Source: Strigamia acuminata
Taxonomy: Eukaryota; Arthropoda; Chilopoda; Geophilomorpha; Linotaeniidae
Length of the DNA stretch: 64,000 bases
Assembly: GCA_949358305.1 (NCBI GenBank)
Contig: OX442317.1
Coordinates: forward strand, 10,978,186-11,042,185
Direction: 5' to 3'
Positions 18,623 to 63,718 of the stretch are shown here, one piece after another. The notes under the pieces were generated by a model. The model did not search any database. It saw only the letters and a program-made list of their open reading frames with translations, and had not been told where the DNA came from. The position numbers and the translations under genes were made by a program. The first letter of the stretch is position 1. Every line of letters starts with the position of its first letter.

Positions 18623-18727
18623 GAGCTTGAAAAACGAAATGGCGTCGTTCCGTTATCGGAATTAACCATGCGCGCAACTAAAGAGTTGCTTATATGCGCT
18701 AACTAACTCAAATGCACTTATAAACGT
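18623..18727 (+). pseudogene. Element G gag, continuation after copia A
   Basis: 105 bp between the target duplication of A and the LTR of F. In the frame that is open just before A (gct tac gag...), it continues as a charged ~30-codon stretch to TAA near 18710, supporting the view that it is the other side of the G gag. Confidence 0.55.
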
Positions 18728-19156
18728 TGTGACGATTCTACTTTTGGCTGAATAATTAGCCATTACAAGAGATAAATCGGTTTAAACAAGACATTTCTAC
18801 AACTAGAAATAACCTAACCGAGATAAGCTACGGAAGTCTGTACAACGTGAATATGTGACCAAAATAATAACTTACGATTTTCGTGTGATTCAAATACATG
18901 TTTATTAACATTACAACTGGGTTGAGGTTCTGGGTAAGTGTAACGGCGGCTACACTGGTTGAGGATCCGGGCGATGCTGTTCGAGTGGTGCGGCTGACTT
19001 TGCGGCATCGTCACAGTTAGCGCTGCGGAAACGCATTCGGTCCCGCAGCTAGGATATCTATTAATACGAAGAATCCTTCGTATTTGGTCGGGAATATTCA
19101 TTAGAATATTCCGTATTCAAATCAACAAAACATTATTATTAGTGTAATATAACAAA
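18728..19156 (-). repeat. Element F 3' LTR, U5-side piece
   Basis: On the plus strand begins TGTGACGATTCTAC and ends at the C insertion site, where CAAA (19153-19156) is repeated at 31983-31986. The uninterrupted sequence is seen at 44365-44800. Its first ~200 bp differ clearly from the 5' LTR; the rest is nearly identical. Confidence 0.9.
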
Positions 19157-19495
19157 TGTGGTGACCTCAAATATTCCTATTTGAGCGGACACCATATTTC
19201 CAATTCGTCTTGTAACTACAACAAACATTATTTTATGTTCTGTTTCAATGTAAATTGAAATAGAACATATACTGCCATAGTTAAATAAAAGGCACAATAT
19301 TATCCAAATAATATTGTGTCTTGCAACAAGTTTTGGCCCGGCAACAGCGTTAACCAATCGCGCTGCAGCGTGCATTGCTTTGATGATGCTGCTAGGCGTG
19401 TGCCTGGGCGGAGCATCCCCTCCTCTCGCGCGTGCCCGGCTCAATTGTTGCACACGACCCGAAGGCGGCCGTGTGTGATCTAAGCGCAACTCGTC

Positions 19496-19720
19496 ATCTG
19501 CGCAGCTCTACTGAGCAGATTTGGGAGTGAGCCAAACGGTTTTGGCCCACTCTTCCCGCATTCTTGATCTTGCTTCCAAACCTTTCACAACCGTGTCAAA
19601 CTTATGCCCAAACTTGCTAAGTGTGATCTGTGATATTGGAAGAATTGAGTCTCATTGCTGGTTCGTGCCAACTGTACGGAATAGCGCCTTTCTGCTTGAA
19701 TTACTACGAGTAATTTAAGC
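19496..19720 (+). other. Strong hairpins in the element C LTR
   Basis: ATCTGC/GCAGAT (19496-19520); a 12-14 bp interrupted stem GAGTG-GCCAAA with TTTGGC-CACTC (19523-19557); GCTTGAATTACT with AGTAATTTAAGC (19694-19720, 3-nt loop, one G-U). They precede the shared-loop array. Confidence 0.75.
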
Positions 19721-19732
19721 CATTTCTGTGTG

Positions 19733-19945
19733 AAATTGACATTGAGCTTGCTCTGTCAATTTGAAGGCTTTGTGTCGAGTTTAACTCCACAAGGCGATCT
19801 GTGTGAAGACGGATTATTGCGTCGAGCTTGCTCCGTAATAATCAACCCGCTGTGTGCTAGACGTATTCTCGTGTCGAGCGTGCTCCACGAGAAGTTTTAG
19901 GTGTATTAGAAGTAGGTTTTTGGCATTGAGTTTACTCTGCCAAAA
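19733..19945 (+). other. Array of five hairpins with a shared loop in element C LTR
   Basis: Stems and loops: 19733-19762 (9-bp stem AAATTGACA, loop TTGAGCTTGCTC); 19767-19795 (8 bp with one G-U, loop TCGAGTTTAACTC); 19812-19843 (10 bp with one G-U, loop TCGAGCTTGCTC); 19866-19893 (8 bp TTCTCGTG, loop TCGAGCGTGCTC); 19918-19945 (8 bp TTTTGGCA, loop TTGAGTTTACTC). Stems are unrelated, loops nearly the same; GAG and CTC inside the loop can pair to cap a tetraloop. The array recurs in the 3' LTR at 31479-31691. Likely an RNA structure; role unknown. Confidence 0.88.
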
Positions 19946-20238
19946 TCCCGCGCTCACGCGACGCCATCGACGCCATATTGGAGCCAACGGTCAACTGTGA
20001 GTGTGCCAGTGTAAGAAGAAGTCAGATCGACCCCGTCATTACATATTATTTTGCATCATATTCGCTGTGTATTTTAGAACGATTAAAACAATCTAATTTT
20101 TCCTTTTACTATTCTGTGTAAAAATCATTCCCCTAGACAACCATTTGGCCACAGAGTAGAAGACCTGTACGGCATCTCAACGACGATTACTTGATAAGTC
20201 TACTTGATTTATTAAGTAAAAACCCGGATCGCCACACT

Positions 20239-20256
20239 TGGGGGCCCGTACGGGAT
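20239..20256 (+). other. Element C primer-binding site
   Basis: TGGGGGCCCGTACGGGAT, two bases after the LTR. It resembles a proline-type PBS but differs at several bases; which tRNA fits must be checked against the host tRNAs. Confidence 0.65.
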
Positions 20257-20327
20257 TGTTTTTATTGTTAAAATCCGATTTTTGCAAAAAGATCCATTAT
20301 TTCCTTTGTTCTCTCAATTTGACAAAA

Positions 20328-23225
20328 ATGGCGACGCCAATTCAAATTGTGAAACGACTACGAGGTCGACCAAGCACCCAGAAGCGAGCAGCAACGGTTC
20401 TCCCGGCTCTCGAAGCTGAAGTGCTTGTAGAAAAGAATATCGACGAGGAAATAACACCAGTTCCAGATCCAAAACAACTTAAGGATGCTGAAAATGAAGT
20501 AGCTAAAGCATTAAGCGCTTCAAGCACGAGTTCTAACGAACAAGAACTCCCGCCACTTCCACTGGAAGAAGTGGAAAATACATTACGAGAGATTGAGAGT
20601 GAATCGTCACAAGAATCACCTCCTCGCATAACCATGCTGGATGCTTTGAGAAATCAAGCACGCCAGGATGGCACCCAAATAACGGATGATATGACGGTGG
20701 AAGAGATTCATCGCGCCATGATTCGAATTCACACCGATCGAGCCGTCTCAAATTTAAAATTTGAAATGGAACGAAAAGAAGCTGAGCTTCAGCAACAAAA
20801 AGCTGAGGTTGAACTTCAACACATGGAACTCAATCGCCAAAATGAAGAATTTCTAGCCCAAAAAGCTAGAGAATACCGATTAAAAGGTGAGTTGGAAGAT
20901 CTTTCTAAGATGAACGTTAGAAATGAACTTTCAATTCGCTCACATCAGGAGGCGCGAAAACAGCTCGAACTTACTAAAAATAAGTTGGAGCAGAAAAACA
21001 AAGAATTGATTGAGTTGGCAGATCACTACCAACGCAACCATAACCAATTAATAAGGTACGCTTCTGAATTAGACGAACGAGCTAAAACACAGCGTACTCG
21101 AGAAAGTCGAATAGCTCAGCGGGAAGATGAGGTTTTCCAGTCGTTGGATCAACCAAGTACGAGTGGACAAATCAAATCTATCGACTCTGCTAATCGAACA
21201 CAAATAACTAAAACAAAAGTTCACTTAGAAGAGAATGAGATTCTCCGAGCTGATTTGTTACGAGCTCAAGAAGAGCTACAAGAAATGAAGGATCGCTTGA
21301 AAGAGAGAAGCGATGCGATGCGATTGGTGCAACCCGAATTGGTGGCACCAACTGCTCCAATAAAAATGCCCGAAACAATAGAAATTACTACTGTTTCAGA
21401 GCTGAGCAGCCAATCTGGATTATCGAGTGATGACGACCAACGTTCACGTAGTCGCCATCGCTCAAAAAGAAAACGTCCTTCGGATTCCGAGGAGAGGAAG
21501 TCCGAACGAAATCCCCTTCCGGGAAATCGAAATCCTATTTTTCACAACAGTGACCGACTGTTGGGAATGGTAGACGCTCGAAATAGGCAACGTGAAACTG
21601 TTGTTCACGCTAACCAACCAGTATTAGCTGCCCAGCAACAAGGATCGTCGAAAAGAAGTCGACAAGAAGCGAATCCAGCACGCGAACCACCTGATGGACA
21701 TGAAAGCCCACCTGGTGGGGGACAGTATAGAAGAAATCCGCCAGATGGAGGAAATCCAGATGGACATGGAGATGGACCGCCTGGAGGTGGACGGCGGCCG
21801 CCAGATGATGACGGTGACCCGCCCGATCCACCTGAGACGCCACATTTTAATACACCCTCGAATTCGCAATCGGATTCGAGATCCGATTCTGACGCGAATT
21901 CCAGGCAACAAGACCGCGATAACCGACATCGTCACCATCGACGTCGACATCGAGGACATTCTTCTCGGCGTAATACTCATTATTATACTGCTGAAGAAAT
22001 TGATAGATTATTAGCTGATCGTCGATCTTCTGATCGATCTGACGCTATCGCCGATAATGCTGACATTGCATTACGACAAAAAATTGCACAATATACTGCC
22101 GTCAACTGGACTCACGATCTTGTTGATGAAAGAACCATAAGATGGGATCACATCAAACCCGCTCTATTTGATGGAGAATGGGAAGCTGGATCCACTCTGT
22201 TAGATGAAGTTCTACGAATTTCAAGGTTGAATGGCATTGCATGTCACACTGCTTTGAAAAGAGTAGTACCCAAAGCTCTTATAGACCGAGCTGAAAAATG
22301 GTTTTATTCAAAACAATTTCAAAATTGGAATCACTTTGTAGAGGAATTCATGGTCGAATACGGAGAATCGAGTGAGGACCTGCTACAAATGTGGGATAAT
22401 CTTTCTCAAAATAAAGGCGAAAGTCTTCGTTCTTATTTGAGACGGACAGAAGATTTATTGGCAACTCTACCCTATACGATGGGAGATGCAGCCGTTGATC
22501 GTCAATTCCGTCGGGGATTGACTGATTATTCCAAAGGTATTCTACTTTCAGTACGAGCACCTTATCCGGGTGGTTTTGCAGAATTAGCCAAATTCATGCG
22601 CATTAACCAGATAAGGATTGATGAAAATTATAAAGCTTACTTACCAGCTGATGAAAAAGTTGCGTACGCTAAGCGACAGCAAAGGAGAAAGGAATTGGCA
22701 AAAGATACACGTTTTGCTAACACCCCTCTTTTGCAACCCCCAAAACGAGGAGATTATTTGGCAGAAACTGCTAAAGAATCGAAAAAGGGATCGGATGGGA
22801 AAAACCCACATCCAACCCCGAAAGCTCACTTGGCTGAAGTGACCGAAATGGAAACTGCTTCGGAACCGGAGAAATCTGACTCGGAACCAGAAAGCGAAGC
22901 TGCAGCTGCATTACTAGCACGTAATAATGCAGTAGCTAGAAAGTTTGGACCAAAGATGGCGCCTAAGAACGTTACTTTTGGTTCACCAAAAACGGACGCG
23001 CTCAGTAGGACGAAGTCACCGACTCCTAAAAAAGATGAAGCTAAACGTTCAAGTTCACCTTCACCAAAAGTTGCTAAATCGCCGGCTACTGACCCGTGTA
23101 ACATTTGTAAAAAATTGGGACATTGGGCTAAAGAATGTCCTGATAGGAAATCGAGCAAGGACAAGGTTTTGGAGGAGTTCGAGAAATCGATGAAGTCAAT
23201 CGGCGAACTTCTAAAAAACTTGTAA
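20328..23225 (+). CDS. Element C Gag (965 aa)
   Basis: Start chosen at the first ATG after the PBS (20328). Residues ~5-15 hold a basic RLRGRPS AT-hook-like stretch; ~165-340 is a long Glu/Gln/Lys/Arg-rich coiled coil; ~380-550 is Ser/Arg/Pro/Gly/Asp-rich; ~555-780 carries the Retrotrans_gag-type capsid region (WDHIKPALFDGEW... onward); a CCHC knuckle CNICKKLGHWAKEC lies near 924-937. At 965 aa it is long for gypsy Gag, mostly because of the coiled coil and low-complexity linker. It should assemble virus-like particles and bind the RNA. The last codons contain the -1 slippery site. No break in the frame. Confidence 0.92.
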   Translation: MATPIQIVKRLRGRPSTQKRAATVLPALEAEVLVEKNIDEEITPVPDPKQLKDAENEVAKALSASSTSSNEQELPPLPLEEVENTLREIESESSQESPPRITMLDALRNQARQDGTQITDDMTVEEIHRAMIRIHTDRAVSNLKFEMERKEAELQQQKAEVELQHMELNRQNEEFLAQKAREYRLKGELEDLSKMNVRNELSIRSHQEARKQLELTKNKLEQKNKELIELADHYQRNHNQLIRYASELDERAKTQRTRESRIAQREDEVFQSLDQPSTSGQIKSIDSANRTQITKTKVHLEENEILRADLLRAQEELQEMKDRLKERSDAMRLVQPELVAPTAPIKMPETIEITTVSELSSQSGLSSDDDQRSRSRHRSKRKRPSDSEERKSERNPLPGNRNPIFHNSDRLLGMVDARNRQRETVVHANQPVLAAQQQGSSKRSRQEANPAREPPDGHESPPGGGQYRRNPPDGGNPDGHGDGPPGGGRRPPDDDGDPPDPPETPHFNTPSNSQSDSRSDSDANSRQQDRDNRHRHHRRRHRGHSSRRNTHYYTAEEIDRLLADRRSSDRSDAIADNADIALRQKIAQYTAVNWTHDLVDERTIRWDHIKPALFDGEWEAGSTLLDEVLRISRLNGIACHTALKRVVPKALIDRAEKWFYSKQFQNWNHFVEEFMVEYGESSEDLLQMWDNLSQNKGESLRSYLRRTEDLLATLPYTMGDAAVDRQFRRGLTDYSKGILLSVRAPYPGGFAELAKFMRINQIRIDENYKAYLPADEKVAYAKRQQRRKELAKDTRFANTPLLQPPKRGDYLAETAKESKKGSDGKNPHPTPKAHLAEVTEMETASEPEKSDSEPESEAAAALLARNNAVARKFGPKMAPKNVTFGSPKTDALSRTKSPTPKKDEAKRSSSPSPKVAKSPATDPCNICKKLGHWAKECPDRKSSKDKVLEEFEKSMKSIGELLKNL

Positions 23226-23254: not shown

Positions 23255-26200
23255 ACGCCTACAGCCTCGGAAAACGAACTAACACCATCTCAAATTTTAG
23301 ATGAATTTTTAAATACTCAAATTAAAATAGAAATTGAAAATAATTTGACGTTTCCAAAAATTGATGTTTCCAGTTTAAGGCAAGTGCTGCAAAGTGAAAA
23401 CATTAATGAAGAATTCTTTAAACAAGAAGTTCAAAAAATTAAAATAAATTGGGAATCTAAAATAAAAGATGCTGTTACTTTACTAGATAACAAATCTAGA
23501 CCAACACCTGAAATCGTTGAAAGGTCAGATAAAATTGATTTACCTGGTCTTGATGAATGCATTGAAAAATTAATGGCTACTATGTTAGTCACTAATGATT
23601 TATTGGACGAATTACCATTGGATCCGCCAATAGAAATTAAACCTCCACGACGTTTCAAGTGCAAGTACGCGGACATACCAAATAGTAATGATTTGCCGAC
23701 AATTCGATTGCAGACGGCAACCGGAATGATAACAGGGATGCTAGACTCTGGAGCTAATCGAAGTTTCATGGCCTACTCCGTAGTAATTTCACTGAAGCTG
23801 GAGGAGGAAATTCGACCAATTGGACCGGATGTGAGAGTTACAACTGCTTCAGAGGATGTAGTCCCCGAATGAACTCTCCTACTTTCTTTTGCGTGGACAC
23901 ACGGGATGTTAAGTCATCCATTCATAATTTTGAGAAATAAATATCCTATTGTTTTATTAGGATGTGATTTCATGAATCGACTCAACATACAACCAAATCC
24001 TAAGACGATGTCTTGGAATTTTGTTAAGTCTTTGAAAGAAGATTTACCTTTTGTTCCTCAAGCGATTCTTGATCGTTATCAAGAGTTCCTTGATCCACCC
24101 GAAGAAATAATGAGACGCGACTTTATTAAGGCTAATCACATGAAAGCTGGTTCCGCCACTGCATGTCAAGCTAAAGTTGCGAATGAAGAAAATATAGTTC
24201 AAAGACTTGTTAGCGATGCTAATTTGTCAATGGAAAATAATTTAATGCTTGAAAAAGTATTAAAGAAACATGAAAAGATTTTATCGCACCGACCAGGTAG
24301 AACACACCTCGTTAGGCATGAAATTAAACTGGACACTAAAGTTCCTATTAGAGTTCCGTTTAAAAGCGTAAACCCACAAAAACGTGAAATTATTCGTCAA
24401 ATCTGTCAAGATATGTTGGATAATGGATACGTTGAACAAGCAACTGGAGACTATGCAATGCGAATAGTTCTAGTTATGCGTCCGGACTGTGATCCGAGAC
24501 TCTGCATTGATTTTAGACCACTCAATGCACACACACTATATGACCCTCCTCAAATGCCAAGCATTGAGGAAATCCTTCGAGAACTCGGAAGATTTGAATG
24601 GGTCACAACAATAGATTTGTCAAAAGGCTATTGGCAAATAGAAGTTCATCCGAACGACCGTGCTAAAACTGCGTTTTGGAGTCCTTTGGGTCGACTACAG
24701 TTTCGAGTCATGCCCTTTGGTCTCGTAAATGCACCGTCAACTTTTCAAAGGTTGATAGAAAAAATTCTAGGGGATGCCTATCGAAAATTCGCATGGGCAT
24801 ACCTCGATGATATAATTATTATATCTAAAAATTTTGATGAACATATGATTCATCTTGAGGAAATTCTGAGTAAGCTTGAAGATGCAAATCTTCATGTTCA
24901 TCCAGAGAAGTCAAAATTTGGCAGAAAAGAATTAACTTTTCTTGGTTACAAGTTAAGTGTTCAAGGAGTTAGTGTCGACCCTAAAAAAGTCGCTGCTATA
25001 AAAGAAATGCCAGCTCCTTCAAATTTGAAAGAGTTACAAAGATTTTTGGGAATGGTGAACTTTTTTCATCGATTGCTTAAAAATCTGGCAGCAATGACAG
25101 AACCTCTACGTCCTTTACTTAAAAAGGATATAGAATTTATTTGGTTGGAAATTCATCAAAAAACTTTTGATCAAATAAAAGATGCTTTAACGAATGCAGA
25201 AACAATGGCCATGCCTGATTTGACAGAACCATTTATCGTGCATACCGACGCTAGCAGAAAAGGGTTAGGCGCCGCGCTTATGCAAATGAGAGACATCGAT
25301 GATCAAAATATCGAAGTGCCTTGTGTTTATGCCAGCAGAAGTTTACAACCTGCCGAAATAAATTACAGCGCCACCGAATTAGAGTGCCTAGCAGTAATCT
25401 GGGCCTTGCGTAAATTTCGACATTACTTAGAATTTACAACATTCATAGTAAGGACTGACCATCAAGCATTAAAATGGTTAATGCAGTTAGACGAACCTGC
25501 CGGAAGGTTAGCGCGTTGGCAAATGGAGCTGATGCGCTACTCTTTCGAAATTCAATGCATTAAGGGTCCACTAAATGTTTTAGCAGATACTTTATCAAGA
25601 TCACCAATTGATAAACCGGAAAATCCTGAAGATGATGGAGACAATGATGAATTACTGTCTTACTGTCCATCACCACAAAGAAATTGGAAAATGGGAAAAT
25701 TTTATGAACTTCCTGTTTCCACTCTGGAGGAAAAGGAAGATCACGAATTCGTCAACTACTGGACTAAAATATATGACCCCTCTGAAGAATCAGATGACGT
25801 CATACGAGCGCAAATTTCAAAGAAATTCCAAATTCAATCATCAAATGTTTTAATAAAAGCATTTGTTGCCAAAATAGTAGAACGTCTTGATTGTGAACCT
25901 CCCACAAGAGCGGACATAATTAAGGCACAAAAAGAAGATAAGGATTGCCAGTTAATGCGTAACTTTTTGAACAGCAATCAATTTCCTCCTGACGTTGTAA
26001 CACGACTTCAGAGGAAACAATATCGAAAGCGTGCGTCCACCTTCTTGATCGAAGAGGACCTATTAATGCAATTTCATCCCACAATGTCTGATGAATTGGG
26101 GGAGGATGGGAGAGCACTCAAAGTTTTTGTACCTCAGAAATTGAAGTATAAAATTATTTGGCTAATGCACGGCCACCCACTTTCTGGTCACCCAGGAATT

Positions 26201-27694
26201 GCAAGAACTCTTTATCGAGCCCGCCGAATTTATACTTGGAAAGGTATGAAATCCGACATCACGCGATTCATTCGACACTGCGAGCGCTGTCAAGCTTGCA
26301 AACCTCGAACGAAAGGACAAATTGAAGCTGCACAAATGGGTCCTTACAGCCCATTTGACTGCTTAAGTGTTGATTTGACTGGCCCGAAACCTCGGACACG
26401 CAAAAACAACACACATATTTTAGTCATACTTGACGTGGCAACTCATTGGCCAGAACTATTTCCAATGAGTAACCCCACCGCCGGGAAGGTGGCAAATTGT
26501 ATTTATCATCTTTCCATGAGTGTAGGATTCCCTCGCAAAATTATTTCTGATAACGGCCCGCAATTTCGTGCCCAAGTCTTTAAAAAATTTTGTGAAAAGT
26601 TCAAGATGGTTCCAACACCAACTTCGACCTATCACCCGCAAGCAAACCCGGTTGAACGAGTCAACCGTGACATCAAGTACCTGATTGCAATTTATTCCAG
26701 TATTCATTCTAAATGGGACGAATATTTGCGTGAATTTGCATTTAGTTTGAGAACTACGGTTACGAGAGGAAGAGATTTCTCTCCCGCATTTCTTAACTTT
26801 TTTCGAGAACTCAGAGTACCTTGGGATCCAAGAATACCTGAAGGAATTTTAGTACTAGATCCAAAAAATCCACATTTGTACATACAAAAACTGGAAGCAA
26901 TTATTGCTGAAACATATCAGCACATGATGTCACATGTGTTAGATTTGCGTAAGCGAGTGAATTTGAAAAAAGAAGGTGAGAAGTTCTCCAATTTTAAAGT
27001 CAATGATTTAGTTTGGAGAGATTCTCATGTTTTGTCGAGCGCTGCCCGTGGTATTGCAGCTGGCATCGCTGATAAACGCACTGGACCTTATGTAATAACC
27101 AAAGTATTGCAAGGAGGTTCAGTAGAATTAAGAAAGCTAGAAAATAACGAGATATTTCCAGCTGTCCATTCGTCAGAATTAATCCCGTATTTCCCGAGTT
27201 TTGATCAGGAAGTATGGCTAGAAGGCGAAGAAGTCGGTCAGCAGACTGAAAATATAATTAATACGTTAGATGACGATGAATTAAAGAAAATACCTGTCGA
27301 TAGTTCATCTCCTACAAACATGGAGTCAGACCTCGTGACTAACGACGTTGAACTCCGTAACAGTTTCAAAAAACTTGAAATTGCTAAAAAATTAAATAAA
27401 AAGGTGTTTTTAGACAAAAAACAAAAAACATCTGAAATAAAAAACTCATCTGACTCAGTCTCCGATGACAATGAAGACGGCGATTTAAACACAATAAATC
27501 CCTCACCGACAAAGAGATATAATCTTCGGACTCGTAAACCGAGAGGAAAAAACAACATGTGTCTTCTCCCCTCGCTAGCCTCGAGATCTAGGGATCAGCC
27601 GTATGACGTAAGGAATAATTCCCCAAGCCATAGGCAAGTCAATCAGACGCTGAGATTGGATGACGTCGCTAACCACGACGCCACCCAAACGTAA
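23219..27694 (+). CDS. Element C Pol with an in-frame stop in protease
   Basis: Translated by -1 frameshift from gag. Aspartic protease with DSGA at 23744-23755, then an in-frame TGA at 23870-23872, then the same frame stays open through the LLGCDF part of the protease, reverse transcriptase (YLDD at 24800-24811), RNase H (HTDAS near 25240), integrase zinc module (HGHPLSGHPG to CERCQAC, 26167-26300), DD35E core (Asp near 26371 and 26548, Glu near 26655), a GPY/F module (TGPYVI near 27081) and a charged tail with YNLRTRKPRG. The single TGA would remove RT and integrase unless read through, so this copy is probably inactive. Ty3/gypsy domain order. Confidence 0.92.
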
Positions 27695-27902: not shown

Positions 27903-30732
27903 ATGGAGGAAAGTGAAACCAACGAAGGAAGCGACGCCGGAGCCGGCAGCCTCGAGTTAGAAACTAATTCGACGTTGCATGGTTCCGCTAACACGTCTAA
28001 CACGTCGGTGGAAGTGAATGACCCGTCCGCCGAAGCTCAAGCCGCTCTGGCCGACGCCGCCGCTCACCTGCCGCCCGATCCACGAAGGGTTCGCGGGCCA
28101 AGAAATCCAGCTGTCGATGAAAACGGCGAAACACGCTTTCAACGACACCAAAGGGTAATTAAGAATCAAATAAAATTACTTTTCAGTCACGAAAAGTAAT
28201 TTAAAGTGCTTTTTATTGAAAAAACACAAAAGTTTGTTGGTAACGTCTTCCAAGGAAGACGCCGCCATTTTTACCGTTAGATGGCGCTGTGTGTCATCTT
28301 TAGGGCGTTGCTACGGCAACGCGCGCGAGATGAAACATAGCCATCGGGGACACCATTTTGCCATGATTTTTCAAATATTTTTGAAAAATTATTAAATTAT
28401 AAAGACCGAATAATATCCTATTTACGATTTTATTCGTCAAAAAATAGAAAAATAATTATTTTCTGGAAGAATAAATATTAATCGATTTTTCCGAATAATT
28501 TTCAGATTCTGAAGCTTCGGGAAACAGCATTAGAGCTGCACCCCGATGTGCCAACCGATCCAGGAATCTGGCGACATGCGTTGCCGCCAGAAATCATCAA
28601 GTCCAAAGGAACCATGACGTTCTGGAAAGCTCGCCATCGTTTCTCGAGAGCGATTATGAGACGATGGGGATCACGATGTCGAATCGCCTTTCTCATCGAC
28701 GGCTTCGGACATCGTGACGCTCTCGAATGGGCGCAAAGACGTGACACGCAAGCGCCACTACAAAACTGCTTGTTGGACTTTGCTTTCGCCCCGACTACAC
28801 AAGAAGGGCGAGACCATCGTCGCTTCTTCAACGCTCCAATGAGGGAGCGCCGTCAGATTTTAGACGACATTTTTCACCGGCTTGACCAAACGAAAAATGA
28901 AGTCGTACGCCAGTACCACGAGTCTTTCCGGCCGATAACGAATGGAAGGAGTCGATGGGTCCCAACAAGTCAGACTGAAATGCATCAGCTGGCTATGGCG
29001 GGATGTTTCGACGCAGATTTCGTGCCGAATCCGTATCCGGAGCCCGAGCCCAGGGTACAAGTCGCATCGACCGTACACGTGGCGCCACCCCGTTCCACGT
29101 CGAGGTCTCGTTCATCAAGGTCGCCTTACAGTGGCCGTCGCTCCTCTCCAACCCAGTCGTCGGGAGAAGGCGCCATTGGAGGGCTACCCCAACTCCAAAA
29201 GACTCGTCACCGATCACATCATCGCCATCATCAAGTCAACGCCACCAGCGAGACAATCGAAGTCCGTTTCCAGACATTCGTCCCGAAGCCGACCTCGAAA
29301 GCCATCGCGCCAATCCTCAGCGAGAAGTTCCGTTTCCTCGCATGAAGAAAGTTCGAACGCTACACGAGTTAGCGCTTCCTCCTCTTACCAAATTGACTGG
29401 TCGGAAGAGATAGCGAAAGAAGACCGACGCATCACCGCGTTGGAAGCCGGACAGGGAGACGCAAACGACTCGCTGCCCTTCGCCTGCCGTCCCGTTCGAA
29501 GTGACATGCGACCCGATCTAACTGTGCCCGTGCCACAAGTGACAACGGTCATTCGATTCGAGGGATCGCACATCTCTCCGGAACCGTTCCCCGCTCAGGA
29601 ATGCAACGATCTCTGGAGACGATTCTCATCGTTTCCCGAAACCGCACAAGCGATGTACCTCGCGAATTTGGACGAATACCAACTCGCCCAAGTTCGCGAA
29701 GGTGAGAAGGAATGGCAGTGGCTTGCCCGAGAACTTGATTCGTGCAAGTCAGACAAGCAACTTCAACGGAAGCTGCAAATGATGCAGAGAAAACTTGCGG
29801 TAGGACTTCTTCGAATTCTATCCCAAGGAGTCTTCCCCGATCTGCAAATTGCTCTAGCGGCTGCCACACGACTGTGGACCGTGCCGCTGGGACTCCGTCG
29901 AGCCTTACTGGATGACTGGGAGTCAGTTCGTCCCGATCCTCCAACGATGCTCGCCGAGCTAACGCAGCAAGCCAAAGCGACTGGCGAAACTCCAGCAGGA
30001 TCCGCCATTCGACTACGACAAGAATGGGCAACGCTAAAGCAGCAACGCGCAACGGAACGAGCTACCGCCCGTCCCGCTGGCGCCCCACCGTCCAGCGTCG
30101 CTCCACTCAACGCTGTCATCGCGGCAACGTCGGGTAGGATGCGTGCAACCGAGGCACCAGGTTGCAACCCCTCGTCGCCAATGGAGTGGCTCGACAGCGA
30201 CGACCGCGAATTTGTCGTGCCCGTGGACAGCGGTGCGAGATCGAAGAAACGCACCCCGGCTTCGCGCAGATCCCGATCACTCTCGATCTGCAAGAAGTCG
30301 CCACCGCCACCGCCACCTCCAAGAGATTCGCCGCCCAGAGATAGGGAAGCCGACATGCTCTCCTACCTCACCGCTTATCAACGATTGCGCTCGTTATATC
30401 CGTTCTTCTATATAACGAGCGCAACGAAAACGATTTTGCAGCATAACGACGACTTATGCAACCGAGTCGTCGCTTGGTTGGAAAACCATATCAAGGAGCA
30501 ACAGCCATGGCTTCTACACCAGCGCCTGGTTTTTGCTCGAGTGGCACCAAAAGACCCACAGGAGTTTTTCGAGATGGGGTTTGGCAAGAAGGAAGGTGTG
30601 AAGCTCCTAAAACAGGTGTGGCTTCACATCAACCCCGGATTCCAATCCGGACCGAACATTGGAAAGCCCTTGTGTAGCGTTACGGAACGCAAGGACCCCA
30701 ACGATCTGTCGTCCGATATGCTTCCTAAATAA
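27903..30732 (+). CDS. Element C ORF3, two predicted exons, function unknown
   Basis: ATG 27903 follows a TTAG acceptor-like site at 27892-27895. Exon 1 (27903-28154, 84 codons, acidic, Ala-rich) and exon 2 from 28506 join in phase 0 across a 351-bp GT-AG intron. Exon 2 stays open to 29345, giving a Trp/Arg-rich segment and Arg/Ser dipeptides. The remaining coding sequence is open one frame over (to 30732): RS-rich, a helical region with many Gln/Arg/Leu, a proline run near 30300, and a C-terminal domain without known motifs. The frame change lies between about 29130 and 29300 and may be an indel, a second intron or a frameshift. No signal peptide, membrane segment or CxxC pairs. It is not recognisably related to the ORF3 of B, F and D, although it occupies the same place. 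The intron and frame switch are inferred. Confidence 0.7.
28155..28505 (+). other. Predicted intron in element C ORF3
   Basis: Starts GTAATTAAG and ends ATTTTCAG after an AT-rich tract. Both flanking frames are in phase 0. Contains stops in all frames and sequence unlike the flanking coding region. Retention of an intron means this RNA is spliced after transcription, since the genomic copy was made from unspliced RNA. Confidence 0.7.
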
Positions 30733-30902: not shown

Positions 30903-31982
30903 TGTGGTGACCTCAAATATTCCTATTTGAGCGGACACCATATTTCCAATTCGTCTTGTAACTACAACAAACATTATTTTATGTTCTGTTTCAATGTAAA
31001 TTGAAATAGAACATATACTGCCATAGTTAAATAAAAGGCACAATATTATCCAAATAATATTGTGTCTTGCAACAAGTTTTGGCCCGGCAACAGCGTTAAC
31101 CAATCGCGCTGCAGCGTGCATTGCTTTGATGATGCTGCTAGGCGTGTGCCTGGGCGGAGCATCCCCTCCTCTCGCGCGTGCCTGGCTCAATTGTTGCACA
31201 CGACCCGAAGGCGGCCGTGTGTGATCTAAGCGCAACTCGTCATCTGCGCAGCTCTACTGAGCAGATTTGGGAGTGAGCCAAACGGTTTTGGCCCACTCTT
31301 CCCGCATTCTTGATCTTGCTTCCAAACCTTTCACAACCGTGTCAAACTTATGCCCAAACTTGCTAAGTGTGATCTGTGATATTGGAAGAATTGAGTCTCA
31401 TTGCTGGTCCGTGCCAACTGTACGGAATAGCGCCTTTCTGCTTGAATTACTACGAGTAATTTAAGCCATTTCTGTGTGAAATTGACATTGAGCTTGCTCT
31501 GTCAATTTGAAGGCTTTGTGTCGAGTTTAACTCCACAAGGCGATCTGTGTGAAGACGGATTATTGCGTCGAGCTTGCTCCGTAATAATCAACCCGCTGTG
31601 TGCTAGACGTATTCTCGTGTCGAGCGTGCTCCACGAGAAGTTTTAGGTGTATTAGAAGTAGGTTTTTGGCATTGAGTTTACTCTGCCAAAATCCCGCGCT
31701 CACGCGACGCCATCGACGCCATATTGGAGCCAACGGTCAACTGTGAGTGTGCCAGTGTAAGAAGAAGTCAGATCGACCCAGTCATTACATATTATTTTGC
31801 ATCATATTCGCTGTGTATTTTAGAACGATTAAAACAATCTAATTTTTCCTTTTACTATTCTGTGTAAAAATCATTCCCCTAGACAACCATTTGGCCACAG
31901 AGTAGAAGACCTGTACGGCATCTCAACGACGATTACTTGATAAGTCTACTTGATTTATTAAGTAAAAACCCGGATCGCCGCA
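30903..31982 (+). repeat. 3' LTR of element C
   Basis: 1080 bp, four differences from 19157-20236; ends GATCGCCGCA and is followed by the target duplication CAAA (31983-31986). The hairpin array lies at 31479-31691. Confidence 0.95.
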
Positions 31983-31986
31983 CAAA

Positions 31987-33121
31987 TGAATTGTTATATT
32001 GTTATTCTATGGGCGGGGACAGTCACGACAGTCGAGGGGACCATCGCGGGAGTTGTTGAGGCTCCATCCGCCAGCATGCCTTACGACGACAAGATCCAGT
32101 GATCAGGCGCCGGGTATTTGTTTTCTGCGTTAAGTCGCTTTCAGTGGTACCAACCACTGGGTAAACAGTTCCTGGGGGACTACCAGATCGGCATTACCAA
32201 TACCCGAGTGTTTGTTTAGCGCAAGGTATGAATGCAATTGCTCACGGGCCACCAACCCGGTGTGTCGCCTATGAATAGGCCTTTTACCGACCTCAGGCAA
32301 GTCTTGCCTACTTAACGGAAGGGCCAATGCACTGCATCGGAACCCTGGGAATACAGTTTGCCCATATTTGTTAAACGGGTTCGACTTCCCGTATATGTGC
32401 TCTGGCAGAGCATCTGACCTATGATCGGAGAATCGCGCAAATAGATGCGACTATCACCGATCATATAATTTGACATTTGTTTAACGGGTTAGTCATTCCC
32501 GTGCATGAGCGATATACTAAGCCACCGTACGAAATCTAACTGTCCCTTGGAACAGCAAGCTAGCGCTACGGGGCCATTTCATGTGTGAAACATGTCTACT
32601 GGAGTTAGCCTTCCCAGATGGGCCCTACAACAAGCAATAACGTGATAGTAATAATACATATCCATTGAGAGCTGAGGAGGCCCGATGTGTCGTGAGAGAA
32701 AGTGAGATCATACGATAACAACAATGCAATACAACAATATTCATTCAAGCCAAGGGGGTCGCGCTGGTGAAAACCAGAGCTTATATAGTTCTAGAGAACA
32801 ATCAGATTAGCGACAGCCAATCAGACGTCAGAATCCATGGATTCGTGGATCACTAGTCCGGACCTAATATTGAACTGGGTCCAGAAGAGTCCTATTGGTC
32901 CTCTTCAAAAGGTAAGTATAACAGGATACTGATTCGATAGAATCAATATCCCAAGTAAATAATACTTTGTGGAGTCTAGTAAAATACTGTATATTTTATT
33001 CGCAACGTTTATATTAATTCTTTAATATAACTCGTAACCTTATCGAGTTTAAACTGCGCGCGTTAAATAAACAGCGCCATCTAGTGTGAACATTGGATAA
33101 TACGGTTTTATAACCGTCACA
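31987..33121 (-). repeat. Element F 3' LTR, U3-side piece
   Basis: Continues the LTR of F after the C insertion and ends (plus strand) ACCGTCACA at 33121; minus strand begins TGTGACGGTTATAAAACC. The purine tract CGGGGGATG precedes it on the minus strand. It matches 44795-45721 almost base for base up to 32911, after which the 5' copy is cut by D. Many short hairpins. Confidence 0.92.
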
Positions 33122-44364: not shown

Positions 44365-45721
44365 TGTGACGATTCTACTTTTGGCTGAATAATTAGCCGT
44401 TATAAGAGATAAATCGGTTTAAACAAGACATTCCTAAACTTGGAAATAACCTAACCGAGATAAGCTACGGAAGTCTGTACAACGTGAATAGGTGATCAAA
44501 TATAATAACTTCTGATTTTAGTGTAATACATTACATGTTTATTAACATTACAACTGGAGTTGGGGTTCTGGATAAGTGTAACGGCGGCTACACTGGTTGA
44601 GGATCCGGGCGATGCTGTTCGAGTGGTGCGGCTGACTTTGCGGCATCGTCACAGTTAGCGCTACGGAAACGCATTCGGTCCCGCAGCTAGGATATCTATT
44701 AATACGAAGAATCCTTCGTATTTGGTCGGGAATATTCATTAGAATATTCCGTATTCAAATCAACAAAACATTATTATTAGTGTAATATAACAAATGAATT
44801 GTTATATTGTTATTCTATGGGCGGGGACAGTCACGACAGTCGAGGGGACCATCGCGGGAGTTGTTGAGGCTCCATCCGCCAGCATGCCTTACGACGACAA
44901 GATCCAGTGATCAGGCGCCGGGTATTTGTTTTCTGCGTTAAGTCGCTTTCAGTGGTACCAACCACTGGGTAAACAGTTCCTGGAGGACTACCAGATCGGC
45001 ATTACCAATACCCGAGTGTTTGTTTAGCGCAAGGTATGAATGCAATTGCTCACGGGCCACCAACCCGGTGTGTCGCCTATGAATAGGCCTTTTACCGACC
45101 TCAGGCAAGTCTTGCCTACTTAACGGAAGGGCCAATGCACTGCATCGGAACCCTGGGAATACAGTTTGCCCATATTTGTTAAACGGGTTCGACTTCCCGT
45201 ATATGTGCTCTGGCAGAGCATCTGACCTATGATCGGAGAATCGCGCAAATAGATGCGACTATCACCGATCATATAATTTGACATTTGTTTAACGGGTTAG
45301 TCATTCCCGTGCATGAGCGATATACTAAGCCACCGTACGAAATCTAACTGTCCCTTGGAACAGCAAGCTAGCGCTACGGGGCCATTTCATGTGTGAAACA
45401 TGTCTACTGGAGTTAGCCTTCCCAGATGGGCCCTACAACAAGCAATAACGTGATAGTAATAATACATATCCATTGAGAGCTGAGGAGGCCCGATGTGTTG
45501 TGAGAGAAAGTGAGATCATACGATAACAACAATGCAATACAACAATATTCATTCAAGCCAAGGGGGTCGCGCTGGTGAAAACCAGAGCTTATATAGTTCT
45601 AGAGAACAATCAGATTAGCGACAGCCAATCAGACGCCAGAATCCATGGATTCGTGGATCACTAGTCCGGACCTAATATTGAACTGGGTCCAGAAGAGTCC
45701 TATTGGTTCTCTTCAAAAGGT
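44365..45721 (-). repeat. Element F 5' LTR, truncated by insertion of D
   Basis: Plus strand begins TGTGACGATTCTACTTTTGG and is collinear with 18728-19156 joined to 31987-32911, ending CTTCAAAAGGT where D starts; the intact 3' LTR continues CTTCAAAAGGTAAGTATAAC. It contains the empty site for C near 44791. Confidence 0.92.
44697..44810 (-). other. Hairpin cluster in the LTR of F, conserved in D
   Basis: Three perfect hairpins: AATACGAAG/CTTCGTATT (44701-44722), GGAATATTC/GAATATTCC (44729-44750) and AATATAACAA/TTGTTATATT (44784-44808 region). Equivalent stems in D differ by paired substitutions (see findings). Confidence 0.75.
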
Positions 45722-54834: not shown

Positions 54835-55771
54835 TAAGTTTTATTCAAAACTTGAAGACTGTAATTATTTACATGTCTGACAGGTGTAGTGATTTATAAT
54901 CTCAACACCGGGGGACAAGATATTACGATATTTATGGAAATTTATATTAAAAAATATGAATTTGTTGCGATGAATTAAATATTCGGTAGAATATTTTAAT
55001 TCTTTGGTCGTATTTACATGTATTTTAACCAAAATACAGAGAATTACTTTGAAAAGTGATAATCTCGCGTAATTACGAAGGTACGAGACTTACGAGGTGT
55101 GATTAAACCTCGAACCCGACAATTAATAGGGAATAACTTCCCAGGGTTCATTGCACACAAACACTTCGTAATACACACGGATACTAGTGACTTCGTCCCT
55201 TCGACCCGTCTTCACTTTCAACTCGAGATTTCCGCTAATTCATTTAGCCGACTCTAAAACAAGGAAAACAAGCTTCAATTGTAAGTAGTTTTCGTTATTA
55301 TTCTTTGACTAAAGAATTAAGAAATTGTTCGCAACAATTGGTAAAATATCGGCGTCCCGATAAAAGTTATAAATTCACGTGCTGTTATAAGCGTGAATCG
55401 GCATTAAATCACTCTGGAAGTTTAGCTATTCAGTCGAATAGTTGGGTTAAGTTTAATAATTATTTATTAAGTTTAAATACGTGGGCACTAATTATTTAAA
55501 TCAAGTCGCGGTCGAGGCTTGCATAAATTATTTAGCGGTGAATTTTCGATTTGAGATATTTATTAGACTAAGTGTTAATTAATTAATACGAAAAGTTATC
55601 TTTGATACTTGGAAGTTGGATTAAATAGTTTACAAAACTAAGGGGATTTTTCTTTTGAAAAATCAACAAGTTGCGATTTTCGATGAAAATCGCTGTCGGG
55701 CGAGTCCATTCTCGTGTCATAAACACAAGGGGAATGTGACTCATTAGTGTCACGTGTTAAGGGTTATAAAT
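54835..55771 (+). other. Element D pol-ORF3 spacer, first part
   Basis: AT-rich, no gene; collinear with the F spacer. It is cut at 55771 by copia E and continues at 62512-62629. Confidence 0.7.
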
Positions 55772-56271
55772 TGTAGATCAAGAGATCATTTATTATTTCA
55801 CAATTACAGAGTTTTTCCTTTATTTATTTATAATGCATATGTTTTGTTTTCCCCACTTATGTATCTAGTTTTGATACATATCGTATTTTAAGCATTGAGC
55901 ACCATGCGCTCTTTATCATTTTCTTTAATTTTCACTTAATGTGAAATATTGTCGCTTAGTAAAGTCAGCACCAGATGGTGTCTTATCGTTTTTGCTTTTG
56001 TTATCCAATATGGCGTCTCCCGCACAGGACGGTCGCCTTTATGTATTCTCTTCATTTATAGCAGTATGTAAGTGTATATTTTCATTAAACCGTTTTATTT
56101 AGGCTTTTTATTAAGCTTTTGTTCTTTGTTTGCCACGTTTGATAAGTGGCAAACACACACGCATTCACGAGGCCGTGCGGAGAAGCGCGCCCGTGCCACG
56201 TCGTCATTATTACGCTCATTTCGGCCATTAATAGCTTCCACTGGCCCGTTTTATTTTTCCACCACGCTACA
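55772..56271 (+). repeat. 5' LTR of copia E
   Basis: TGTAGATCAAGAG...ACCACGCTACA, 500 bp, identical to 62012-62511. Confidence 0.97.
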
Positions 56272-61802: not shown

Positions 61803-62011
61803 TTTATTTATCCAGATTTTGAGAATTACTGAGCATTAGATTGGGAATTGTGTTTATAAGTGCCCTAATAGTACCCGGCTCAGTAATTCGCTTTCTTTAG
61901 TTATAATTATTGAATACGACATTGGAATCATGTCTTTTCCGGGGTTACAGTCTCGACTTTCTTATTTCATTTGTTATTTGTTCATCCCTGTGATTGTGAA
62001 AAGGGGGAATT
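61803..62011 (+). other. Copia E 3' UTR and polypurine tract
   Basis: Short tail ending GAAAAGGGGGAATT immediately before the 3' LTR. Confidence 0.85.
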
Positions 62012-62511
62012 TGTAGATCAAGAGATCATTTATTATTTCACAATTACAGAGTTTTTCCTTTATTTATTTATAATGCATATGTTTTGTTTTCCCCACTTAT
62101 GTATCTAGTTTTGATACATATCGTATTTTAAGCATTGAGCACCATGCGCTCTTTATCATTTTCTTTAATTTTCACTTAATGTGAAATATTGTCGCTTAGT
62201 AAAGTCAGCACCAGATGGTGTCTTATCGTTTTTGCTTTTGTTATCCAATATGGCGTCTCCCGCACAGGACGGTCGCCTTTATGTATTCTCTTCATTTATA
62301 GCAGTATGTAAGTGTATATTTTCATTAAACCGTTTTATTTAGGCTTTTTATTAAGCTTTTGTTCTTTGTTTGCCACGTTTGATAAGTGGCAAACACACAC
62401 GCATTCACGAGGCCGTGCGGAGAAGCGCGCCCGTGCCACGTCGTCATTATTACGCTCATTTCGGCCATTAATAGCTTCCACTGGCCCGTTTTATTTTTCC
62501 ACCACGCTACA
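62012..62511 (+). repeat. 3' LTR of copia E
   Basis: Identical to the 5' LTR by direct reading; followed by TAAAT. Confidence 0.97.
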
Positions 62512-62629: not shown

Positions 62630-63718
62630 ATGGGAAGTGGCAAACACCGTTCAAAACGGAGTCATCGACGTCACCGTCATGAAAGCTCCAGCTCGTCCAC
62701 TTCGTCTAGTGACGAGCAACGCCGTTCAGCGGAACGTGCTTACATGAGGGCCCAACCGATACCGACGGCGCCCGCCTCGATGTACGCCCTGACGCCGCTG
62801 CAACTTGCAACGCTTAATTGGCTCAGTGTTCATCCGGACGGATTTCCGCTCGACTTAAACGCGATGATGCAGGCCCCGTCCACTTTTGCGCAGCCAACTA
62901 TTTATGAGTCGGCACAATTGGCCCCGTTGGCCCAGGTAGCATTTCCGCCTGCGAACGTTATCAACGTCCCGTTGGCCCCGCATTCGCCAGAATTTCGGCC
63001 GCCAACTGCAAGCGTGGCACCCACCGTCGCCAACACGTCGAATGCGGCTGCACCGACTGTGACGGGACAATCAGCGTCTGTTACGCATCTTCCTGCTGGT
63101 GCTGAGTCTTCTGCATCAGAATACGGATGGAATGAGCCGCCGCCGGGCGCTTTGCGTTTTTCGGAGCCTGTTTCTCGCAACCGCGAGTACCGAGCGGCCA
63201 ATAAGGCACGAAAGAAGGACGAGAAGGCTCGCCTGCGCAAGGAGCAGTGCGAACGAGACATGGCAGCCGGAATACCTCACGATAACATCGTGACGGACCA
63301 GGCAACAGAGACGATCTGCCCATTTTGCGTCGGTTGTGGGTGGTGCTGCGGTGCATCCGCAGGTTCCTCATTAATGAGATGTCCCAACTGTCGAGGAAGG
63401 AAAACGCGACCGCGTTCGGAGCCGTGGCGCAAGGAGGTTCAGCCCCACGTGGTGAAAGGCATTAAGCCTAACGAAAAGCGCTGCTGGGCTCACTGCCCAA
63501 AATGCCGCCTGTTTCTCAACAGTCGCGGTGAAGCGGTGTACATCGACCCGCGTTTCCTCACCTGGACCCGCGCTGAAGCCAACGCCGGTGTAAAAGTCGA
63601 ACTCCTTCGACAGTCGCCGCCGCCGTCCGAGGACTCCGAAGTTTCAACTGAAACCGTCCTAGCCGTGGAAGCCGCAGGATTAGCTGTCGAGGCATTTATC
63701 CATTTGTATACTTTTTAA
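62630..63718 (+). CDS. Element D ORF3, truncated
   Basis: ATG 62630 (MGSGKHRSKRSHRRHRH) matches the F start. SR-like basic/serine N-terminus, Pro/Ala segment in single copy (TPLQLATLNW), then LRKEQCERDMAAGIPHD, CPFC near residue 230, CPNC near 251, CPKC near 289. Homology with F ORF3 ends near 63694; the last ~8 codons (FIHLYTF) are novel and a stop follows, so about 180 C-terminal residues are missing, apparently through another insertion. The zinc-pair core is better conserved with F (near identical) than with B. Confidence 0.88.
   Translation: MGSGKHRSKRSHRRHRHESSSSSTSSSDEQRRSAERAYMRAQPIPTAPASMYALTPLQLATLNWLSVHPDGFPLDLNAMMQAPSTFAQPTIYESAQLAPLAQVAFPPANVINVPLAPHSPEFRPPTASVAPTVANTSNAAAPTVTGQSASVTHLPAGAESSASEYGWNEPPPGALRFSEPVSRNREYRAANKARKKDEKARLRKEQCERDMAAGIPHDNIVTDQATETICPFCVGCGWCCGASAGSSLMRCPNCRGRKTRPRSEPWRKEVQPHVVKGIKPNEKRCWAHCPKCRLFLNSRGEAVYIDPRFLTWTRAEANAGVKVELLRQSPPPSEDSEVSTETVLAVEAAGLAVEAFIHLYTF

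What the first reader, a model, noticed from the sequence alone, without database searches (positions are those of the whole stretch)
19733..19945. Five hairpins with unrelated stems but one shared loop in the element C LTR
Seen directly: five consecutive inverted repeats with 8-10 bp stems of different sequence enclose 12-13 nt loops of the form TYGAG-NNNN-CTC. Stems stay paired while their sequence changes, and the loop stays fixed, which is the pattern of selected RNA structure and not of simple repeat expansion. GAG/CTC in the loop can form a further 3-bp cap with a 2-nt 5' bulge, reminiscent of protein- or RNA-binding stem-loops in retroviral leaders. Inference: a multivalent recognition element for Gag, ORF3 or a host factor, or a transcript stability/translation element. 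I know of no described equivalent.
Basis: partly seen in the sequence, partly recalled or inferred. Interest (0 to 1): 0.87.

Follow-up and report, generated by a model that had tools for sequence, protein, structure and literature searches.

The report
Five TAR-like RNA hairpins in retrotransposon
The repeated ends of a mobile genetic element carry a row of five inverted repeats, predicted to fold as RNA hairpins, whose stems change in sequence yet stay paired while the tip keeps the same letters that let HIV's TAR RNA grip a protein's arginines, so the row is likely a docking site for an arginine-rich protein, predicted to be the element's own Gag.

Summary
In detail: five hairpins with 8-10 bp stems and one shared tip, at 19733-19945 and again in the 3' LTR; an exact scan finds no others in the window. 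In 56 distinct arrays from this Ty3/gypsy family in the same genome 98.9% of pair cells pair, with two-sided changes and few transversions. Changes favour G-U over A-C on the element's sense strand (about 37 vs 19, p 0.011), which points to RNA. LTRs only about 67-77% similar carry arrays with other stems; several related LTRs have none. The fixed part is R-U-Y-GAG-Y-N-U-R-CUC-Y. The bulge U changes once over 5 sites, its neighbour 29 times. These are the positions HIV TAR needs for its arginine-binding base triple (PMC11885821, PMC6189040, passages read). I infer a multivalent docking site for an arginine-rich protein, most likely the element's own Gag, which has an Arg-rich segment; binding is untested. 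Transcript start, host and partner are unknown. No Rfam match in the array, and no described equivalent in my literature searches.

The parts
19157..20236 (+). 5' LTR of element C (TGTGG...CCACA), 1080 bp
   Evidence: self-alignment; 4 of 1080 positions differ from the 3' LTR, none inside the array; 4-bp target duplication CAAA
19733..19762 (+). hairpin H1: 9-bp stem, UU bulge, GAG/CUC cap, loop CUUG
   Evidence: copies show compensatory U-A/C-G at 19736-19759 and G-C/A-U at 19738-19757
19767..19795 (+). hairpin H2: 8-bp stem, UC bulge, GAG/CUC cap, 5-nt loop UUUAA
   Evidence: loop ends U-A 50 / C-G 6 across 56 arrays
19812..19843 (+). hairpin H3: 10-bp stem, UC bulge, GAG/CUC cap, loop CUUG
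   Evidence: absent from the single MFE fold of the whole region
19866..19893 (+). hairpin H4: 8-bp stem, UC bulge, GAG/CUC cap, loop CGUG
19918..19945 (+). hairpin H5: 8-bp stem, UU bulge, GAG/CUC cap, loop UUUA
   Evidence: compensatory G-C/A-U at 19922-19941 and A-U/G-C at 19925-19938
30903..31982 (+). 3' LTR of element C
31479..31691 (+). second copy of the five-hairpin array, in the 3' LTR
19284..19289 (+). AATAAA, the only one in the LTR; if it is the poly(A) signal the array lies in U5
   Evidence: its role is inferred
20082..20087 (+). ATTAAA, the only one in the LTR; if it is the poly(A) signal the array lies in R
   Evidence: its role is inferred
20187..20219 (+). further hairpin near the LTR 3' end: on the 12 pairs that are Watson-Crick in the window copy about 9 paired double changes, 8 to G-U, 1 to A-C
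20239..20256 (+). probable tRNA primer-binding site, 2 nt after the LTR
   Evidence: sequence; the tRNA was not tested
20238..23225 (+). Gag ORF (Retrotrans_gag, CCHC knuckle)
21924..21971 (+). arginine-rich segment of Gag (ORF residues 563-578), candidate ligand of the array
   Evidence: binding untested
23906..27694 (+). pol ORF (RT, RNase H, integrase) placing the element in Ty3/gypsy

Best explanation
The LTR carries a row of five hairpins whose pairing and fixed tip are kept while the stem sequence changes, and the row likely works, as sense-strand RNA of the element's leader, as a multivalent docking site for an arginine-rich protein, predicted to be the element's own Gag selecting its genome. 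Shown: pairing kept through sequence change, and a fixed core of purine, bulge U, pyrimidine, GAG, Y-N-U-R, CUC. Supported but not proved: that it acts as sense-strand RNA. Inferred: the bulge U folds back on the A-U pair of GAG/CUC as in HIV TAR, and arginines stack on that triple and contact the two flanking guanines. Inferred: several equal sites in tandem raise avidity, so stems may drift as long as each stays a rigid handle. Inferred: the ligand is the Arg/His-rich segment of Gag, giving packaging or leader remodelling.
For: Pairing: 58 pairs x 56 distinct arrays, 3012 WC, 196 GU, 22 AC, 14 other mismatches, 4 gap cells. With 36 distinct LTRs 99.14% of cells pair against 96.15 +/- 1.08 in a tree-based null, 0 of 1000. 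About 16 double changes end paired, about 2 unpaired. Transversions in 36 LTRs: 5 over 116 paired sites, 54 over 97 unpaired array sites. Strand: about 48 WC-to-GU against 19 WC-to-AC changes (p 2.6e-4); restricted to the 56 of 58 pairs that are Watson-Crick in the window copy, without the loop-end pairs, 37 against 19 (p 0.011). Tip: bulge base 1 has 1 change over 5 sites, bulge base 2 has 29, linkers 2.44 per site; U 278 of 279, A of GAG 279 of 279, its U 279 of 280. This is the TAR pattern: U23 is needed, its neighbours are ancillary, a two-U bulge is natural in HIV-2, and swapping either flanking G-C to C-G abolishes Tat binding (PMC11885821, passages); G26 and G28 are arginine contacts (PMC6189040, passages). 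Diverged LTRs: L100, L110, L111 and L113-L118 match the window LTR at 67-77% over most aligned blocks (83-88% in five shorter blocks of 24-231 nt) and give 3-5 hits of a relaxed scan, with other stems; one hit each in L115 and L116 is weak. Gag: an Arg-rich segment (8 R in 16 residues) is kept, with at most a few substitutions, in all 10 copies whose piece covers at least most of it; 17 pieces fetched, 14 matched, 4 of those begin after it. An Arg-rich stretch lies at that place in the one Gag found downstream of a diverged array, 27% identical over the match (1 of 8 pieces matched).
Against: No binding data. About 30 single changes on the array tree do break a pair (19 to A-C, 11 other). The strand bias is moderate once reference bias is removed (p 0.011). 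Part of the high rate at bulge base 2 may be CpG mutation, since C there is followed by G. In HIV TAR a third contact is G21; here the pair two below the bulge has a pyrimidine on the 5' side in 78 of 78 stems, so that contact is absent. The number of pairs with double changes is not significant against the tree null (5 vs 2.45, 57 of 1000). Of 8 loci fetched by LTR 3' end alone 6 show no convincing array hairpin. H3 is absent from the single minimum-energy fold of the region. The transcript start is unknown. In the one diverged Gag seen the protein is 27% identical, which could equally point to a host partner.
Confidence: 0.45

Rival explanations
1. The array is a decoy or recruiter for a host transcription factor set: it mimics 7SK or works like TAR, binding HEXIM or another arginine-rich host protein on the nascent transcript and so freeing or attracting P-TEFb for elongation.
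For: The tip matches the bulge of TAR; [quoted passage not shown] In one diverged copy the LTR is about 70% alike in DNA while its Gag is 27% alike in protein (the two measures are not on one scale), as a host partner would allow.
Against: No Tat-like gene was recognised; no 7SK or other Rfam match in the array. If the AATAAA at 19284 marks the U3/R border, the array lies some 400 nt into the transcript, not at its start as TAR does (inferred; the strand asymmetry would allow a later start).
Confidence: 0.25
2. The array is a genome dimerisation element: the self-complementary GAGC..GCUC tips of two RNAs pair with each other (kissing loops), helped by NC.
For: GAGY..RCUC is a palindrome apart from its centre, and N1/N4 covary. 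Several equal loops per RNA would give many contacts.
Against: The loop centre is not self-complementary in most hairpins: 4-nt loops have N3 = U in 92 of 95 and N2 = U or G in 84 of 95, and 3 of 110 distinct hairpins have the full palindrome CATG. Kissing does not explain the fixed bulge U beside a freely varying neighbour.
Confidence: 0.12
3. The palindromes act as DNA: binding sites of a dimeric regulator or cruciforms in the LTR.
For: Repeated near-palindromes at 35-52 bp spacing in an LTR resemble clustered protein sites. The strand bias of the array is only moderate (37 vs 19 events, p 0.011).
Against: A DNA-binding factor would not keep pairing while most of the stem sequence changes, and DNA symmetry predicts equal G-T and A-C mismatches; cells on pairs that are Watson-Crick in the window copy are 179 vs 22. 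LTR hairpins upstream of 19555 show no bias (summed events about 22 vs 25), those from 19595 on outside the array do (about 21 vs 2).
Confidence: 0.06
4. The array is a translation or RNA-stability element of the leader, for instance a roadblock or a bound translational regulator; the fixed tip is an unknown protein's site unrelated to arginine stacking.
For: A fixed tip would fit any stem-loop binding protein; the nearly invariant loop U (N3, 92 of 95) is not explained by the TAR comparison.
Against: Would need the match to the TAR bulge determinants tested here to be chance.
Confidence: 0.12

Closest known systems
HIV-1 / HIV-2 TAR RNA bulge
   Same: Pyrimidine bulge starting with U on the 5' side, G-C, A-U, G-C above it, a pair below it; the U and the G-C orientation are fixed and the other bulge base is free; HIV-2 also has a 2-nt bulge. 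Lies in an LTR.
   Different: Usually five, up to seven copies in tandem; a Y-N-U-R tetraloop with a 4-bp cap in place of the hexaloop (recalled); pair two below the bulge is Y-R; no Tat gene recognised; position in the transcript unknown; Ty3/gypsy retrotransposon, not a lentivirus.
7SK snRNA stem-loop 1 arginine sandwich motifs
   Same: Several arginine sandwich bulges in one RNA; one has the same secondary structure as the TAR bulge (PMC6189040, passages).
   Different: There the motifs sit within one helix; here each has its own hairpin. No Rfam match.
Retroviral packaging-signal hairpins (for example tandem leader stem-loops)
   Same: Repeated hairpins with shared tips and variable stems, upstream of gag.
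   Different: Known ones use GNRA/GACG-type loops bound by zinc knuckles (recalled); here the constraint sits on a bulge and cap. For the yeast elements Ty1/Ty3 a review describes packaging sequences as not precisely defined and Ty3 RNA structure as uncharacterised (PMC4974528, passages).
Su(Hw) site cluster of the Drosophila gypsy leader (recalled)
   Same: Tandem cluster of repeated motifs in a Ty3/gypsy element's leader.
   Different: That is a DNA-binding insulator without inverted repeats (recalled); here base pairing is under selection.

Membership tests
Arginine sandwich motif (TAR type) | Bulge pyrimidine U (cap) on the 5' side | tested here: met
   U in 278 of 279 hairpins; 1 change over 5 sites vs 29 at the next base
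Arginine sandwich motif (TAR type) | A-U pair second above the bulge, able to take the U in a triple | tested here: met
   A 279 of 279, U 279 of 280; the triple itself is not testable here
Arginine sandwich motif (TAR type) | Flanking G-C pairs in fixed orientation | tested here: met
   first G 273 of 279 and second G 276 of 279; no C-G swap at either pair in the 56 arrays
Arginine sandwich motif (TAR type) | Watson-Crick pair directly below the bulge | tested here: met
   5' base purine in 278 of 279; Watson-Crick in 67, G-U in 10, unpaired in 1 of 78 distinct stems
Arginine sandwich motif (TAR type) | Arginine intercalates and binds | not testable with these tools
   needs binding or NMR data
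HIV-type TAR element | Guanine two below the bulge (G21) as third arginine contact (PMC11885821, passages) | tested here: not met
   pyrimidine on the 5' side in 78 of 78 stems
HIV-type TAR element | Apical loop of six bases that binds cyclin T1 (recalled) | tested here: not met
   Y-N-U-R tetraloop, 5 nt in H2
HIV-type TAR element | Hairpin at the very 5' end of the transcript | tested here: inconclusive
   transcript start unknown; sequence hints disagree
HIV-type TAR element | Tat protein encoded by the element | tested here: inconclusive
   no Pfam hit in the longer ORF3 frame; Arg-rich stretches in Gag and ORF3
7SK snRNA | Match to the Rfam family | tested here: not met
   no Rfam match in the array up to E = 5
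Ty3/gypsy LTR retrotransposon (host element) | LTRs, gag, then RT, RNase H, integrase in that order | tested here: met
Retroelement packaging signal | Needed in cis for packaging, bound by Gag | not testable with these tools
   no binding or packaging data

The most novel reading that the evidence does not exclude
A Ty3/gypsy retrotransposon has evolved on its own a TAR-like, arginine-gripping RNA switch and multiplied it five- to seven-fold, so that arginine-sandwich recognition of leader RNA is not a lentiviral speciality but a general retroelement device.
Probability: 0.35. Interest if true: 0.92.

Novelty: new variant of a known kind. Interest (0 to 1): 0.8.

Why it matters
How Ty3/gypsy elements, close relatives of retroviruses, recognise their own leader RNA is poorly defined; for Ty3 itself a review calls the RNA structure uncharacterised (PMC4974528, passages). 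Here is a compact natural mutation set, 110 distinct hairpins of one kind in one genome, that shows which bases matter. If arginine recognition is right, TAR/Tat-type recognition arose outside lentiviruses and in multivalent form, which a simple peptide or argininamide assay can test.

Tried and rejected
Rejected: chance; simple repeat expansion (stems differ), although unit duplication does occur; a known RNA family; DNA-level palindrome as the main function; my idea that bulge base 2 covaries with the pair below it as a base triple (one search shows all four combinations in H5). Tested and weak: number of pairs with double changes against the tree null (57 of 1000 reach it).

Counting only changes from pairs that are Watson-Crick in that copy lowers the array from about 48 vs 19 to 37 vs 19 events, and the 88 vs 2 cells of the hairpin at 20187-20219 become about 8 vs 1 events. 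I left the odds of the main reading unchanged and raised the DNA rival by 0.01.

Led nowhere: protein search of the window's genome with part of pol (not completed); Gag and another window ORF against the protein collection (no hit at E 1e-5 and 1e-10 among the roughly 8000 candidates scored in each), so host and Gag relatives stay unknown; viral contigs with a two-loop pattern: 95 and 13 stretches, of 106 loci read 1 had stems of 5 bp or more, identical copies of one repeat. Literature searches showed no equivalent in their listings: 0 papers hold 3 of 'tat-like', 'retrotransposon', 'arginine-rich motif', 'tar-like' and 0 hold 'tar-like', 'retrotransposon', 'stem-loop'. I saw passages of three papers (PMC6189040, PMC11885821, PMC4974528) and listings of the rest; most subscription papers are not in that library.

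Limits: counts of copies are lower bounds (the tool scores 40 candidates per search). The tree was built from the arrays themselves, that from the LTR outside the array. In one search the 110 hairpins were those with at least 6 of 8 flanking pairs out of 177 loop matches on both strands; most of the other 67 look like antisense reads of the same palindromic tip and a few are chance; L092 was left out. The 94.4% paired there is thus partly by selection (arm-shuffled mean 67.5%). Identities of diverged LTRs come from the best three alignment blocks per locus. The 8 loci fetched by LTR 3' end alone were 8 of 13 in the list that I did not yet hold; 8 others in that list were already held and have the array.

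Full report
What was checked. Gag (Retrotrans_gag and CCHC) and pol (RT, RNase H, integrase) lie between them. The LTRs differ at 4 positions, none in the array, and the insertion has a 4-bp target duplication, CAAA. The window comes from a 237.5-Mb genome in 157 contigs with no name given.

The observation. Scanning both strands for the loop T[TC]GAG-N4/5-CTC with at least 5 uninterrupted pairs gives exactly 10 hits, five per C LTR, all on the + strand, and none in 30 dinucleotide shuffles of the window. Each folds on its own into stem, 2-nt 5' bulge and cap. In the one minimum-energy fold of the 253-nt region H1, H2 and H5 are complete, H4 has 7 of 8 pairs and H3 none of 10. A covariance model from H1, H3, H4 and H5 finds H2, which was left out, at 24.2 bits (E 4.5e-4); it also gives a weak antisense match to H4 (17.3 bits) and one chance-level match at 63094. 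Across the four aligned window hairpins 7 of 11 pairs change on both sides with every cell paired; none of 500 shuffles reaches either figure.

Copies in the genome. A DNA search with the array gave 40 scored matches of 265 candidates at 87-100% identity. I fetched these LTRs: with the window 41 sequences, 36 distinct. Over 58 pairs they give 1932 Watson-Crick, 134 G-U, 13 A-C, 5 other and 4 gap cells. Throwing the same substitutions at random on a tree built from the LTR outside the array gives 96.15 +/- 1.08% paired against 99.14% seen, 0 of 1000 runs reaching it; A-C cells are 13 against 61 expected; the number of pairs with double changes, 5 against 2.45, is not significant. In the same 36 LTRs transversions are 5 over 116 paired sites against 54 over 97 unpaired array sites. 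Two further searches and fetches bring the set to 72 loci plus the window, 56 distinct arrays: 3012 Watson-Crick, 196 G-U, 22 A-C, 14 other, 4 gap cells. Clear compensatory pairs are 19736-19759 (U-A 39, C-G 16), 19738-19757 (G-C 44, A-U 10), 19922-19941 (G-C 29, A-U 26), 19925-19938 (G-C 30, A-U 26), and the loop-end pairs of H1 and H2. On a tree of the 56 arrays about 16 double changes end paired and about 2 unpaired; about 48 single changes lead from Watson-Crick to G-U, 19 to A-C and 11 to other mismatches.

RNA, not DNA, and the sense strand. Palindromic DNA would lose pairs equally as G-T and A-C. Here changes from Watson-Crick go about 48 times to G-U and 19 times to A-C on the sense strand (p 2.6e-4). 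Because pairs were defined on the window copy, I repeated the count on pairs that are Watson-Crick there: 37 against 19 (p 0.011) for the 56 arrays and 23.5 against 12 for the 36 LTRs. Elsewhere in the LTR, hairpins upstream of 19555 show no bias (summed about 22 G-U against 25 A-C events), while those from 19595 on, outside the array, do (about 21 against 2) (regions chosen after seeing the data). I infer that the array is transcribed and that the transcript may start between those two regions. The LTR's only AATAAA (19284) would instead put the start further upstream and the array in U5, its only ATTAAA (20082) would put the array in R. No transcript data were at hand.

Diverged relatives. 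A pattern of two tips at 44-72 nt spacing matches 164 times in the genome, the reversed control pattern 0 times; a narrower spacing matches 0 times. One match (L100) belongs to an LTR 67-76% similar, with four hairpins whose stems differ. Searching with it and fetching 20 loci gave 12 chosen by the array (L110-L121), which show 2-7 hits of a relaxed scan, and 8 chosen only by the LTR 3' end (L122-L129): 2 (L127, L129) have array hairpins, 4 have none, and 2 have one weak hit each that I take as chance. So the array is a feature of some of the related LTRs. It also changes in number: an H1-H2 unit was copied and then diverged in the seven-hairpin arrays of L102, L105, L119 and L120, and H4 is missing in L106. 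Taking loops from the loci then held except L092, 110 distinct hairpins with 78 distinct stems have at least 6 of 8 flanking pairs, out of 177 loop matches on both strands.

What is fixed. The first bulge base is U in 278 of 279 hairpins; the second is U 116, C 162, A 1. The A of GAG is 279 of 279 and its partner U 279 of 280; no G-C pair of the cap is turned to C-G in the 56 arrays. Changes per site on the tree: lower stem 1.28, first bulge base 0.20, second bulge base 5.80, GAG 0.53, CUC 0.60, linkers 2.44. The second bulge base, when C, sits in a CpG, which may raise its rate, but the first base is also far below the linkers. Loop bases N1 and N4 pair, C-G 64, U-A 27, U-G 3, G-G 1 of 95 four-base loops, and N3 is U in 92 of 95. 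Below the bulge, the 5' bases at pairs -1, -2 and -3 are purine (76 of 78 stems), pyrimidine (78 of 78) and purine (77 of 78), while pair -4 takes all four pair types.

What this resembles. In HIV TAR the first bulge base U23 forms a triple with A27-U38; U23C and U23A abolish Tat binding; any base does at position 24 and U25 can be deleted; HIV-2 has a two-U bulge; flipping G26-C39 or G28-C37 abolishes binding (PMC11885821, passages read). The arginine sandwich motif is a bulge pyrimidine in a triple as cap and the paired base before the bulge as base, with G26 and G28 as arginine contacts (PMC6189040, passages read). The array's fixed and free positions agree with these; it lacks the G21 contact, the six-base loop and any recognised Tat. 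So it works like the TAR bulge, by inference, but it is not a TAR element by the tests made.

Likely partner. Gag has an Arg/His-rich segment, 8 Arg in 16 residues. It is kept, with at most a few substitutions, in the 10 copies whose fetched piece covers at least most of it; 17 pieces were fetched, 14 matched and 4 of these begin after it. Of eight pieces fetched downstream of diverged arrays, one has a Gag match, 27% identical, with another Arg-rich stretch at that place. That this Gag differs so much is also what a host partner would allow. ORF3 frames have Arg/Ser-rich stretches too; the longer has no Pfam match. I put Gag first because leader hairpins of retroelements commonly serve Gag (general knowledge), not because binding was shown.

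Verdict. The feature is real, its pairing and tip are under selection, most likely as sense-strand RNA, and it is repeated. The arginine-docking reading is specific and easily tested. No Rfam family matches the array and no paper in the listings of my searches describes it, as far as titles and abstracts show.

Noticed in passing
window 20187-20219: Hairpin just before the LTR 3' end, 98.6% of cells paired across 36 LTRs with 4 pairs changed on both sides; a hairpin near the LTR 3' end recurs in related LTRs that lack the array (L122-L126), so it may be older than the array.
   Followed up: partly
L102, L105, L119, L120: Arrays of seven hairpins: an H1-H2 unit duplicated, after which both copies changed with pairing kept.
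   Followed up: partly
window 19555-19595: LTR hairpins upstream of here show no G-U over A-C bias, those downstream do; this may mark the transcript start.
   Followed up: partly
window 28548-30732: Two overlapping frames after pol with Arg/Ser-rich stretches and no Pfam match in the longer one; not an obvious envelope.
   Followed up: no
window 18727-19158 and 31982-32913: Element C sits inside another element: its target site CAAA lies at the start of an LTR whose uninterrupted copy is at 44790-45721.
   Followed up: partly
window 20239-20256: Primer-binding site resembles the 3' end of tRNA-Pro with two mismatches (recalled, not tested).
   Followed up: no
window 55768-56271 and 62008-62511: Another LTR-like direct repeat pair of 504 bp, 99.8% identical.
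   Followed up: no
IMG/VR stretches: Many contigs carry two GAGC-N-T-GCTC tips at a constant spacing, mostly without stems; probably a repeated coding motif.
   Followed up: partly
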